Part shown: positions 11,254 through 37,232 of the stretch, one piece after another
Layout: every line of letters starts with the position of its first letter
Position numbering within the stretch: the first letter of the stretch is position 1
NCBI GenBank assembly: GCA_012033205.1
Contig: JAAUSO010000050.1
Coordinates: forward strand, 1 to 40,277
Direction: 5' to 3'
DNA from: Richelia sp. SL_2_1
Lineage (GTDB): Bacteria; Cyanobacteriota; Cyanobacteriia; Cyanobacteriales; Nostocaceae
Length of the DNA stretch: 40,277 nt
Made by a program: the position numbers and the translations under genes
Notes under the pieces: model-generated
What the model was told of the DNA's origin: nothing
Databases searched by the model: none
The model's input: the letters and a program-made list of their open reading frames with translations, nothing else

Positions 11254-11545
11254 ATATTTTCCATTATTAACTGGTTGAATATATTTTCTATCATAAACTT
11301 AAGCTGGGACTCAAGGAAGTATCGCTGGTCGCAATATTCCAGAGTAGATTGTATGTTCCTAGAGTATCACAATCACCGTTTTAGATGAATTTCAAGCCTT
11401 CGGGATGTGAATCACGACTCAGATATCACAAAAGCGTCAAAAAAAAATTTGAAAAAAATGTTGGACAAAATACGTAATTAATGCTCAAATAGATGAGGAG
11501 ATATTTGCTGCTAATAGCTGATATCGACGATTCCCCAAAAAACAT

Positions 11546-11912
11546 GGGGGTGTGGCGGAATGGTAGACGCTACGGACTTAAAAAGTTGAGCCTTGTTGAA
11601 GAAATTCTACAAGTGGATGCTCTCAAATTCAGGGAAACCTAAATTTTACGTTTAAATCTTACGTAAGATATGGCAATCCTGAGCCAAGCCGAATTAACTT
11701 TGATTATTCGGAAGGTGCAGAGACTCGACGGGAGCGACCCTAACGTAATTACAGATAATTGTTTAATTATTGGTAAAGTCGAGGGTAAAGGGAGAGTCCA
11801 ATTCTTAAAACCTAATGTTTGAGAAAACAATCAAGGTAGTAGCGAAAGCTGCGGAAGAATGAAAATCCGTTGACTGTAAAATGTCGTGAGGGTTCAAGTC
11901 CCTCCACCCCCA
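11546..11912 (+). tRNA. trnL-UAA: tRNA-Leu(UAA), interrupted by a group I intron
   Basis: The acceptor halves GGGGGTG (11546-11552) and CACCCCC (11905-11911) pair, with A as the discriminator base. The 5' exon is 11546-11579 and the 3' exon 11862-11912, giving an 85-nt mature class II tRNA. The anticodon stem ACGGA/TCCGT closes a loop with anticodon TAA. The break falls between the first and second anticodon bases, the classic insertion point of the cyanobacterial and plastid trnL intron. The T-arm reads GAGGGTTCAAGTCCCTC. Confidence 0.97.
11580..11861 (+). ncRNA. Self-splicing group I intron of trnL-UAA
   Basis: A 282-nt intron with the conserved core elements in order: P (TTCAGGGAAACC, near 11628), Q (AATCCTGAGCCAAG, near 11675), R (GTGCAGAGACTCGACGG, near 11715) and S (GGAGAGTCC, near 11791). 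It ends in the expected terminal G at 11861. It has no internal ORF. The P6b region (CCGAAT...ATTCGG) is short and carries no expanded heptamers, unlike many Nostoc strains. Confidence 0.95.
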
Positions 11913-11936
11913 TTAATGTTATTTATGGTTTTGTTG

Positions 11937-31031: not shown

Positions 31032-32513
<1,482 letters not shown>

Positions 32514-32544
32514 TAAGTATGTGGACAAAATTAATTATATATTT

Positions 32545-33542: not shown

Positions 33543-33773
33543 CAACCACTCACCCCCTTAAGTCAATATTTGAATTAAAATTCGTAATAAGTAAGTTAGT
33601 TAACTAAAAAATATATTTAATCATATTAAGGTATTGAATATACCGAGAAATTCTAAATAACAAAGTGATTTATTTGACAATTTAATTTTAAAATTTTCTC
33701 CAAATACTTATGACTAAAGTTGTCTTAGAAGCTGTATAATTCTATTTTTTTATTCTTAATCAACTTATTGTTA

Positions 33774-35472
33774 ATGTTGGGGTGCATTCTTTTTATGAGT
33801 CTAAATCAGCCATTTAACTGCTATCAAACTCACCAAAAACAAAATCTTGTCTCTGCAAAATCTTCAAGCTTGGAACTTGTGCCTGAAACAACCTCGAATT
33901 TAGAAATTTACACGACGGAAGCTTTGCGTCGTATTCAAGAAGAATTGGATTGGTATCGTAATTTATATGACCAAAATCCCGGTATCAATTTTACTGTAGA
34001 TTCTACCGGAATGATTTTGTCTGTAAATCAATTTGGTGCCAAGCATTTGGGTTATTTACCCAGTGATTTGCATCAAAGATTAATTTTTAATATATTTGCT
34101 TTTTTTGAACGGGAAAAATTATCCGATTTATTGACAAGATTGTTAAAGAATTCCTCAGAAAAAGTTGAAGATGGAGAATTTTGTTTAAATTGTCCGGATA
34201 GTCAAATTATTTGGCTTAAAATCAAAGCCAGAAAATTTCTGGATAGACAGCAAAATCCCATAATTTTGATGGATTGTGAAGATATTACTGCTGATAAACT
34301 TGCTCAAGCTTCAAATCCAAAGGAAAATAGTTTACTGGAATTAGCTGCTTGCATACCAGTTATGTTGTGGATGACGGATAATCAAGGAGTGCATAACTTC
34401 TTTAATTCTTCTTGGTTAAAGCTTACCGGACGTAAAATTGAGCAAGAATTAGGCTTGGGATGGCTAGAAAATTTACATCCTGAAGATAAAAATGCATATT
34501 TATCAACTTATTCTCAAGCAATCAAAGAAAAACAAAAGTTTCAAATACAATACCGTTTAAAAAGTGCTGATGGTGATTATCGTTGGATTTCCGATAAAGG
34601 TGTACCTCGATTTTCATCTGATAATGATTTTATTGGTTATATCGGTTGTTGTATTGATATTACTGAGTGTAAAAAGCTGAAGTGGCAATTAGGGAAAGCC
34701 AAATAGCAGCACAAGCTCAATTAGAAGAGATGGAATCTCTTAACCGTCTTAAGAATGAATTTTAAGTACAGTATCCCACGAATTACGCACGCCATTAACT
34801 AATATGAAAATGGCGATTCAAATGTTGGAAATTAAGCTTGAAAAAGAACATTTACCTTCTGATACCTCTGAATCAGTTAATTGTTTGAAAAATCATTCCA
34901 AAATATCTCGTTATTTTCAAATACTAAATAATGAGTGCGAACGAGAAATCAATTTGATTAATAATTTTCTCGATTTGCAGCGACTCGATACTAATGCTAA
35001 ACCTTTGGTATTGGAAAAAATTGAAGTATCTCCATGGCTAGAACGAGTAATTGAATTATACAATACACGAAACCGTGATTGCTGTCGGCAAAGATTAAAG
35101 TTAGAGATGGAATCTCATTTACCGTCTATAATTTGCGATCCGTTCAGTTTAGAGCGCATTTTAGTAGAGTTGCTGACTAATGCTTGTAAATTTAGTCCAA
35201 TTAATCAAGAAATTATTGTCAAGGCTCAGGTAAAATCTGATTATATTCAGTTTCAAGTGATTAACACTGGCGCGGAAATTCCTGCTGCTGAATTATCGCT
35301 TATTTTTGATAAATTCTATCGGATTCCCAGTAATGACCCTTGGAAACAAGGAGGTACCGGGTTAGGATTAGCATTGGTACAAAAACTGACCAAGCATTTA
35401 GACGGATTGATTGAGGTGGAAAGCGATTCTAATCGTACAATATTTTCTATTGAATTACCTCTTGAGAGATAA
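33774..35472 (+). pseudogene. PAS-PAS sensor histidine kinase broken by two frameshifts
   Basis: The reading frame goes through three phases. Frame 1, to 34706, holds two PAS domains (NFTVDSTGMILSVNQFG; MLWMTDNQGVHNFFNSSW) and the PAC-type YRWISDKGVPRF. Near 34690 (TTAGGGAAAG) a base is missing; the continuing frame reads SQIAAQAQLEEMESLNRLKNEF and stops at 34756. Near 34760 (GAATTTTAAG) another base is missing; frame 3 then gives LSTVSHELRTPLTN with the phospho-accepting His at 34777. An HATPase follows with the N box (ERILVELLTNACKFSP), NTGAEIP, IFDKFYRIP and GGTGLGLALV, ending at 35472. Both losses would restore a typical cyanobacterial kinase. The first start may be ATG 33774 or 33795. 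Either genuine decay or sequencing error. Confidence 0.85.
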
Positions 35473-35609
35473 TTTATCGTTTCGATAACTGCTTTTTATT
35501 ATCCGTCAGATGTTTGTTCCCTAGCTAATCATAATTTTGTATTGCATATCCGGAAAATTATTCTACAATTAATTTGCCGATATTTCAAAGTTATAGTTAA
35601 TATACGTGT

Positions 35610-35866
35610 AGCTACTGAAACGGAATAATCCGGAGTAATTCGGAGTATTAACTACACCAGCCTCAGCGCGTAAGCGCTACGTTATCTCGGTTATGACACC
35701 CTAGAGGTTAGACAGCTTCAGGCTATGTCGAAGCGCGATTAAACAGTTAAACCGTTCAATTAAAAACAGTGTCGCTAGCTTAAAAAGCCTTGATAACATT
35801 GGCGAGTCAAACTTTACACTTCCAAGTGAAACTAATCATTAAGTTGATTTACACCGAAACAAAACC
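35610..35866 (+). ncRNA. Candidate omega-RNA (HEARO RNA) of IscB
   Basis: The region just upstream of iscB has no ORF but is rich in pairing. AGCGC/GCGCT closes a GTAA tetraloop (35665-35678). GCTTC (35715-35719) pairs with GAAGC (35730-35734), and GTTATC (35681-35686) can pair with GATAAC (35792-35797) at long range. IscB genes are known to carry their guide-scaffold RNA upstream, overlapping or touching the ORF start. The 5' edge and the guide segment cannot be fixed from one copy; the guide would precede the scaffold, near 35640-35660. Confidence 0.7.
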
Positions 35867-37171
35867 ATGCAAAACTACGTATTTGTTGTTGACAAGAACG
35901 TGGTTCCTCTTAACCCGATAAGACCAAAAAGAGCAAGACAGCTTTTGAATCAAAACAAAGCAGCGGTATTAAGGCCTTTTCCTTTTACCTTAATCCTTAA
36001 GCAAGAGATAAGTAACGCCAATATTCACCCACTTACTCTAAAAATAGATCCGGGTTCTAAGACTACAGGATTTGCTTTGCTCGACGGAGACAAAGTAGTT
36101 TGGCTGGGGGAATTGGAACACAGGGGTCAAAGAATAAAAGACTCACTAGAAAAACGGCGTACTATTCGCAGAAATAGACGCAGTAGGAAAACCAGATACC
36201 GTAAGGCTAGATTCTTGCATAGAACGGGTAGTATTAGACCGCTTCCCCCTAGCGTACACCATAGAGCCCTAACAGTTGAAACATGGCTTAAACGCTTTAC
36301 TCGTTTTGTTCCTATAAACAAGATCGCAATTGAGCAAGTTAAGTTTGATATGGCTAAAATGCAAAATGCAGAAATAACCGGAGTTGAATATCAACAAGGA
36401 ACCTTGTGGGGTTATGAAGTACGCGAATACCTGCTAGAAAAGTGGGGGAGGGAATGTACTTATTGCGGCAAGAAAGATGTTCCTTTGCAGATTGAACATA
36501 TAGTTCCCAAGAGTAAAGGAGGTTCTAACAGAGTTAGTAATCTGTGTTTAGCTTGTGAAGAATGTAATCAGAAAAAGGGGAATAAACCAGTAGAAGAATT
36601 TCTTAAAAACAAACTAGAAAAGTTGAAGAAAATTAAATCAAAAATGAAAACACCGCTTAAAGATGCAGCCGCTGTTAACGCATCTAGGAACAAGCTTGCC
36701 TGGATTTGTGAGTTTATAATCTCAGGAATTACAGGAAAGAGAAGCGATTGTGAGGTAGGAACCGGAGCGCAAACTAAGTACAACCGCACTAGGCTAGGTC
36801 TTCCAAAAGAACACAGTATAGATGCGGCTTGTGTCGGAAGCGTTGATACTCTAGAGTTTAGAACTTCGCAGCCGCTATTAATCAAAGCTGCTGGTCACCG
36901 AAACAAGCAGTATGTAAGGATGAATAAATTTGGCTTTCCAGCGTCAAAGCCCCGCAAGAAATACGATATAGGCTGGAAAACCGGAGATATAGCAATATCC
37001 ATAAACAAAGGTGTCAAATGTCTTGGCAGGGTGCTTATTAATGACGCTAAGCGCTTTGAAATGCCAATAAATGGGAAACGCATCTCAGGCAAATATGGTG
37101 AGTTAACTAAACTTCATCGCAGTGATGGATACAGCTACTCGTTTAGTGCGAATTACTCCGTTTCCCCATGA
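35867..37171 (+). CDS. iscB: IscB RNA-guided HNH/RuvC endonuclease
   Basis: A 434-residue IscB, the IS200/IS605-associated ancestor of Cas9. An N-terminal PLMP-type domain (1-50; VVPLNP at 12-17) comes first. RuvC-I is KIDPGSKTTGFAL with Asp61, followed by an Arg-rich bridge helix (97-116). RuvC-II is IAIEQVKFD with Glu156. The HNH domain (197-245) has CTYC, IEHIVPKSKGG with His211, and CEECN. RuvC-III is EHSIDAAC with His316/Asp319. All catalytic residues are present, so the enzyme looks active. A C-terminal PI-like region follows. No tnpA transposase is adjacent. The likely substrate is DNA matching the guide of the upstream omega-RNA. The locus lies between a decayed kinase and the PP2C gene, consistent with insertion by transfer. 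Confidence 0.95.
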   Translation: MQNYVFVVDKNVVPLNPIRPKRARQLLNQNKAAVLRPFPFTLILKQEISNANIHPLTLKIDPGSKTTGFALLDGDKVVWLGELEHRGQRIKDSLEKRRTIRRNRRSRKTRYRKARFLHRTGSIRPLPPSVHHRALTVETWLKRFTRFVPINKIAIEQVKFDMAKMQNAEITGVEYQQGTLWGYEVREYLLEKWGRECTYCGKKDVPLQIEHIVPKSKGGSNRVSNLCLACEECNQKKGNKPVEEFLKNKLEKLKKIKSKMKTPLKDAAAVNASRNKLAWICEFIISGITGKRSDCEVGTGAQTKYNRTRLGLPKEHSIDAACVGSVDTLEFRTSQPLLIKAAGHRNKQYVRMNKFGFPASKPRKKYDIGWKTGDIAISINKGVKCLGRVLINDAKRFEMPINGKRISGKYGELTKLHRSDGYSYSFSANYSVSP

Positions 37172-37232
37172 AGAACTACGTCCTGTTCGAGATTAGGTGT
37201 ATCGTCACAATTAAAATAGTTATACTTTTTAC

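What the first reader, a model, noticed from the sequence alone, without database searches (positions are those of the whole stretch)
35610..37171. Complete-looking IscB locus with its omega-RNA, without a transposase
All RuvC and HNH catalytic residues are intact (Asp61, Glu156, His211, His316/Asp319), and a structured non-coding region sits directly upstream. No tnpA lies within 3 kb on either side. A standalone, intact IscB suggests either recent movement in trans or a domesticated nuclease. The PLMP motif is PLNP here.
Basis: partly seen in the sequence, partly recalled or inferred. Interest (0 to 1): 0.7.

Follow-up and report, generated by a model that had tools for sequence, protein, structure and literature searches.

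The report
Recently inserted IscB element without transposase
This is a small mobile DNA element carrying an intact RNA-guided DNA-cutting enzyme and its guide RNA; it sits in one cyanobacterium but is missing from the same spot in two close relatives, and its guide matches that empty spot, which makes it a well-preserved example of a known kind.

Summary
Window 35867-37171 is an intact 434-aa IscB (guided_IscB 418.9 bits, cutoff 175). The RNA upstream is HEARO/omega-RNA at 35606-35817: 76.9 bits, below Rfam's gathering score of 83, but E 2.9e-15. None of the genome's 12 Y1-transposase matches is on this contig.

Two same-genus genomes carry the empty site in 94-97% identical flanks. The element is therefore a precise 1598-bp insert, most likely 35606-37203 (3-nt junction ambiguity), holding only omega-RNA plus iscB. 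The 16 nt left of it, the presumed guide, occur exactly once here and once in each of the two relatives, at the empty site. That fits a site-retention nuclease on a recently moved element, not domestication. The same genome holds a second, 350-bp insert with omega-RNA alone, also absent from both relatives.

Lack of tnpA is ordinary: 0 of 60 related iscB genes had a listed Y1 gene within 3 kb. PLNP is ordinary too (14 of 35; PLMP 0 of 35).

One oddity: the two ends share an inverted motif, where 18 of 49 comparison relatives show direct copies; no mobilising enzyme was found.

Verdict: new member of a known kind, modest interest.

The parts
35606..37203 (+). the mobile element: a 1598-bp insert holding only omega-RNA and iscB (junction ambiguous by the shared trinucleotide CGT: from 35605-37202 to 35608-37205)
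   Evidence: empty site in G002 (L031) and G001 (L032); start at 35606 chosen because HEARO position 1 and the P1 stem begin there and because the C218 omega-RNA element begins exactly at HEARO position 1
35590..35605 (+). presumed 16-nt guide, host DNA directly left of the element
   Evidence: position 5' of the scaffold as in OgeuIscB (PMC9640706 passages); exact match once in this genome and once in each of G001 and G002, at the empty site
35606..35817 (+). omega-RNA scaffold (HEARO)
   Evidence: RF02033 76.9 bits, E 2.9e-15, below gathering 83; RNA fold z -1.81, 11 of 200 shuffles fold as well
35606..35611 (+). 5' strand of the P1 / guide-adaptor stem, pairs with 35652-35657
   Evidence: 6 of 6 pairs; stem kept with a different sequence in relatives
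35652..35657 (+). 3' strand of the P1 stem, followed by CAG
35618..35643 (+). left-end palindromic motif, two tandem versions of CGGARTAATYCG; part of a 10-bp hairpin with one mismatch at 35624-35649
35867..37171 (+). iscB, 434 aa RNA-guided endonuclease (PLNP motif, RuvC-I D61, RuvC-II E156, HNH H211, RuvC-III H316/D319)
37148..37163 (-). right-end inverted copy of the left-end motif, inside the last codons of iscB
37204..37209 (+). right flank that follows the guide target in the empty site; presumed position of the target-adjacent motif (GTCACA if the element ends at 37203)
   Evidence: the motif itself is inferred, not tested

Best explanation
An intact IscB/omega-RNA element of the IS200/IS605-associated OMEGA kind, in a cyanobacterium of the Rivularia group. 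It carries no transposase and was inserted recently between a sensor-kinase gene and a PP2C-phosphatase gene. Shown: a precise insert, an intact nuclease gene, a HEARO-type RNA at its left end, and a left-flank 16-mer identical to the empty site of two congeners. Inferred: the RNA is transcribed, uses those 16 nt as guide, and directs IscB to cut chromosomes that have lost or never had the element, so that repair from a filled copy restores it; the filled site is spared because the guide match is followed by the element's GTGTAG instead of the flank's GTCACA. Inferred: a transposase in trans moved it, since it encodes none.
For: guided_IscB equivalog score far above cutoff; catalytic residues intact; HEARO hit over the full model; P1 stem kept by different sequences in relatives; empty site identical in two congeners; guide exact at the empty site only; third-codon-position excess of differences against the nearest relative, 140/91/247 over 428 codons, 268 of 428 residues identical, as expected under purifying selection; related tnpA-less elements are multicopy in G006, G068, G096, G011, G071 and the g93 genomes; 12 Y1_Tnp matches elsewhere in the genome.
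Against: The HEARO score is below the gathering cutoff and the single-sequence fold is only mildly more stable than shuffles (z -1.81). No expression data. No Y1 element of the genome shares the ends convincingly. The flank GTCACA does not fit the NNRR motif of OgeuIscB. Insertion after divergence is the simpler reading of presence in one and absence in two species, but loss by clean excision in both others is not excluded. The AlphaFold model was too poor to use (mean pLDDT 43.5).
Confidence: 0.85

Rival explanations
1. A domesticated nuclease kept by the host for its own use (defence or regulation), no longer mobile.
For: Single iscB copy in the genome; the seven other protein matches are short HNH-only stretches. 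The ORF is intact and no transposase is present.
Against: Absent from the same site in two congeners with 94-97% identical flanks; G002 shows no IscB-length match at all (best E 3.9e-10); the element still has defined ends and the guide still matches its own insertion site. Guide matches with up to two mismatches elsewhere are no more frequent than for the reversed pattern (12 against 20 in G000).
Confidence: 0.05
2. A decaying, immobile remnant: the element arrived once and neither moves nor cuts any more.
For: HEARO below cutoff; no canonical end hairpins; single copy; no partner transposase identified.
Against: No stop or frame break, all listed catalytic residues intact, P1 intact; the ends also differ from the canonical form in multicopy relatives of the g93 clade, so they need not mean decay.
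Confidence: 0.12
3. The insert did not transpose here but was brought in, or copied back, by recombination with DNA from another strain (homing without transposition).
For: A guide identical to the empty site is what homing needs. The window flanks are not markedly less similar to the congeners near the insert (whole 1.5-2.2 kb arms 94-97%).
Against: No donor with the same insertion was seen: the nearest IscB element is 62% identical and lies elsewhere. Homing needs a first transposition somewhere.
Confidence: 0.1

Closest known systems
IscB / HEARO OMEGA systems (OgeuIscB, KraIscB-1, MG35-1)
   Same: PLMP-type domain, split RuvC with inserted HNH, Arg-rich bridge segment, HEARO-type RNA 5' of the gene with the guide at its 5' end; standalone without tnpA as in most HEAROs (PMC9755519 passages)
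   Different: PLNP for PLMP (common in cyanobacteria); shorter than OgeuIscB (434 against 496 residues); RNA scores below the Rfam cutoff; flank does not fit NNRR
cyanobacterial iscB-only elements of G006, G068, G096, G011 (canonical ends)
   Same: 1.60-1.72 kb, omega-RNA plus iscB only, no tnpA listed nearby, no target duplication seen
   Different: several of those carry hairpin copies in direct orientation at both ends; the window element has an inverted motif instead
nearest relative: G039 element (L011/L081, 62% identical IscB)
   Same: sister in the tree (100/99), same motif AAACGGAATAAT in the left end and inverted in the right end
   Different: different P1 stem sequence (GGGAGA/TCTCTC against GTGTAG/CTACAC); different site; no empty site available
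TnpB of IS200/IS605 elements (site-retention by guide-directed cutting)
   Same: guide taken from the flank, target is the empty site (PMC11870625 passages on TnpB)
   Different: different nuclease family and RNA; RNA at the left end instead of the right; retention itself not tested for this IscB

Membership tests
IscB (RNA-guided endonuclease) | full-length match to the curated IscB model | tested here: met
   NF040563 418.9 bits, cutoff 175, profile 1-314 of 314
IscB (RNA-guided endonuclease) | split RuvC residues and HNH histidine | tested here: met
   D61, E156, H316, D319, H211
IscB (RNA-guided endonuclease) | N-terminal PLMP motif | tested here: inconclusive
   PLNP here; PLNP in 14 of 35 and PLMP in 0 of 35 cyanobacterial IscBs aligned, so the motif is looser than its name in this group
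IscB (RNA-guided endonuclease) | C-terminal wedge and TAM-interacting domains | tested here: inconclusive
   residues 325-434 present but the AlphaFold model was too poor (mean pLDDT 43.5) and sequence matches stop near residue 324-327
HEARO / omega-RNA (RF02033) | covariance-model match at the family cutoff | tested here: not met
   76.9 bits against 83; E 2.9e-15 over model 1-211
HEARO / omega-RNA (RF02033) | P1 guide-adaptor stem at the 5' end of the scaffold | tested here: met
   6 of 6 pairs in the window; 10 of 21 elements pair fully at 6 of 6 with six different stem sequences; the 11 g93 elements reach 4-5 of 6 with the starts I assigned; swapped-strand control pairs fully in 32 of 186
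HEARO / omega-RNA (RF02033) | located directly upstream of iscB on the same strand, guide at the 5' end | tested here: met
   35606-35817 before iscB at 35867; guide match
HEARO / omega-RNA (RF02033) | RNA is expressed and bound by IscB | not testable with these tools
   no transcript data
IS200/IS605-type element (IscB-bearing) | precise insertion without target duplication | tested here: inconclusive
   precise insert, but the shared CGT could be a 3-bp duplication or chance; canonical relatives show none
IS200/IS605-type element (IscB-bearing) | subterminal hairpins repeated in direct orientation at both ends | tested here: not met
   direct similarity p 0.273, inverted p below 1/400
IS200/IS605-type element (IscB-bearing) | Y1 tyrosine transposase in the element | tested here: not met
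   none on the contig; absent from nearly all relatives too

The most novel reading that the evidence does not exclude
Some cyanobacterial IscB elements, this one among them, have given up the direct IS605-type end hairpins for inverted ends that evolve in concert, left with right. They would then be moved by an unidentified enzyme, or by a Y1 transposase reading the two ends on opposite strands; and the left-end motif would serve both as transposition signal and as the first hairpin of the guide RNA.
Probability: 0.15. Interest if true: 0.55.

Novelty: new member of a known kind. Interest (0 to 1): 0.3.

Why it matters
The pair of filled and empty alleles in close relatives is a natural test case for the idea that IscB exists to hold transposons in place: the guide, its exact target and the motif position can be read from the genomes. 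The omega-RNA-only insert in the same genome shows that the RNA part moves without iscB too. If the inverted ends are real transposition signals, they point to an unrecognised way of moving IscB elements. Otherwise the locus is ordinary.

Tried and rejected
Domestication: rejected on the empty sites. PLNP as a sign of divergence or decay: rejected.

Search for the trans-acting transposase: window and C218 ends were compared with the 12 Y1 loci of the genome (60 shuffles each, the best six per query printed). The lowest p values were 0.02 and 0.05 for the window right end, 0.12 for its left end and 0.03 (three loci) for the C218 left end; no locus stood out for both ends of one element, and 48 comparisons make such values expected. 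Pattern AAACGGARTAATNCGG with up to one mismatch in five genomes: exact only at the left ends of the window and G039 elements; the one-mismatch hits elsewhere were not followed. Left-end pattern of the g93 clade in four genomes: of 30 fetched loci, the matches with 0 or 1 mismatch were IscB elements except one with another insertion after the left end (L157) and two in which the stretch read N; no tnpA-bearing element was seen, but not every listed hit was fetched.

Empty site for G039: its genus holds no other genome. Structure prediction: mean pLDDT 43.5 from six sequences, not used, no fold search made. MAFFT alignment of ten omega-RNAs did not align the P1 strands and was not used for pair counting. 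Two papers wanted, Kapitonov 2016 and Altae-Tran 2021, are not held; what I say of KraIscB-1 as an IscB is recalled, apart from its naming. Searches for print on inverted IscB ends showed nothing on it in the listings; that covers only the held library.

Full report
What was checked. The window is one contig (C68) of a 7.55-Mb draft genome of 359 contigs. The ORF 35867-37171 encodes 434 aa and is open. It matches the curated IscB model at 418.9 bits (cutoff 175), Pfam RRXRR and HNH, and solved IscBs (best TbaIscB 9k30, E 6.9e-39; OgeuIscB 7xht, E 5.3e-23).

The RNA. The default Rfam scan reports no HEARO. With an E-value threshold, HEARO RF02033 matches 35606-35817 over its whole length, 76.9 bits, E 2.9e-15, six bits under the gathering score. 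The single-sequence fold is only mildly better than shuffles: z -1.81, 11 of 200 as good. Better support comes from the first stem: the first six bases of the element (GTGTAG) pair fully with CTACAC at 35652-35657, followed by CAG. Ten of 21 elements show full 6-bp pairing with six different stem sequences; the 11 elements of the g93 clade reach 4-5 of 6 with the starts that I assigned. Swapping strands between elements gives full pairing in 32 of 186 trials, since many stems are alike. Of 20 related loci scanned, 14 have a HEARO over the cutoff, and the nearest relative (L011) does not, so a weak score is a trait of this branch and not only of this copy.

The ends. A search of 60 relatives with the right flank found two congeners, G002 and G001, whose match begins at the same base. 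Alignment of the whole region shows both flanks at 94-97% identity and nothing in between: both read ...GTTATAGTTAATATACGT followed by CACAATTAAAATAG. The insert is 1598 bp. CGT occurs at both junctions, so the boundary can slide by three bases, or CGT is a 3-bp duplication. I place the start at 35606 because HEARO position 1 and the P1 stem start there, and because another element of the same genome begins exactly at HEARO position 1 with no ambiguity. The insert contains the RNA and iscB and nothing else.

The guide. The 16 bases before 35606 (GTTATAGTTAATATAC) occur exactly once in this genome, once in G001 and once in G002, in the latter two at the empty site. G004 has one mismatch at the homologous place. 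With up to two mismatches there are 12 sites in this genome, fewer than the 20 of the reversed control pattern, so those are chance. In the empty site the match is followed by GTCACA; in the filled site by the element's own GTGTAG. The first is not the NNRR motif of OgeuIscB (PMC9640706, passages); relatives' right flanks vary, and I did not derive a motif.

A second insert. The genome's other HEARO (135.1 bits) lies at C218:206-425 with no iscB match and no Y1 match on that contig. Both congeners lack bases 206-555 there, so it is a 350-bp omega-RNA-only insert that ends directly before the sequence ATGACTTTAGAGG, the apparent start of an scpB-like gene (the gene name is my reading of the translation, not a call). 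Its two ends show direct similarity (p below 1/400) like canonical elements, unlike the window element.

Transposase. The genome has 12 Y1_Tnp matches, some fragmentary, none on C68 or C218. In 21 genomes scanned for Y1 (listing truncated), 0 of 60 iscB genes spanning at least 378 aa (window included) have a listed Y1 gene within 3 kb, and 1 of 60 within 10 kb. So iscB without tnpA is the normal state in this group; PMC9755519 says the same of HEARO nucleases in general (passages). Several genomes hold multiple copies with shared ends and different flanks: three in G006, near-identical sets in G068, G096, G011 and G071, and many in the g93 genomes. They move, or moved recently, without their own transposase.

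End architecture. In the window element the left end (35618-35643) and the reverse complement of the right end (37148-37163) share GAAACGGARTAATYCG (inverted p below 1/400, direct p 0.273). In G039 the shared piece is AAAACGGAATAA. In the g93 clade it is another motif around GGTAATTCCCGGTA, lying outside the gene at the right end. With ends set by hand, 12 of 13 elements of these two groups pass p 0.05 for inverted similarity, against 2 of 8 others. With fixed windows and no hand-set ends, 10 of 15 pass for inverted (one of them, L131, through its flank) and 1 of 15 for direct; of the 49 others 3 pass for inverted and 18 for direct. Many of these are near-copies and not independent. On a tree of 56 IscBs the window and G039 are sisters (100/99), the g93 clade is elsewhere, and the label needs three changes, 0 of 500 shuffles as low. 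In the window and G039 the right-end motif lies in the last codons of iscB, so protein constraint may explain part of it. I take this as a real but small observation.

How it most likely works. Shown: insert, intact nuclease gene, HEARO-like RNA, guide identity with the empty site. Inferred from work on IscB and TnpB (PMC9640706 and PMC11870625, passages): the RNA takes its guide from the left flank, IscB cuts the empty site, and repair from a filled chromosome puts the element back. Inferred: a transposase acting in trans made the insertion. Differences from the nearest relative are concentrated at third codon positions (140, 91, 247 over 428 codons; 268 identical residues), as expected if the protein has been kept functional.

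Verdict. Its first reading, recent movement in trans, is largely borne out; its second, domestication, is not; its surprise at the missing tnpA and at PLNP is misplaced. It is a new member of a known kind with an unusually clean filled/empty pair. The end architecture is the only part that might be new.

Noticed in passing
G000:C218:206-555 (locus L045): 350-bp insert with omega-RNA only (HEARO 135.1 bits), no iscB or Y1 match on the contig, absent from both congeners, directly before an apparent scpB-like start.
   Followed up: yes
window 33729-35469: The PAS sensor-kinase region is split into two open frames (325 and 237 codons), while the two congeners have a single frame of 594 and 581 codons. 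Gene break or sequence error not told apart.
   Followed up: partly
window 11545-11913: tRNA-Leu(UAA) with a group I intron (Rfam 11570-11817; ARAGORN with introns), found by ARAGORN only when introns are allowed.
   Followed up: no
window 32422-32519, minus strand: TPP riboswitch upstream of thiC, ordinary.
   Followed up: no
L157 (G238): The left end of an IscB element is followed after about 60 bases by unrelated sequence without an IscB match; perhaps an intron-like insertion into the omega-RNA. Not identified.
   Followed up: partly
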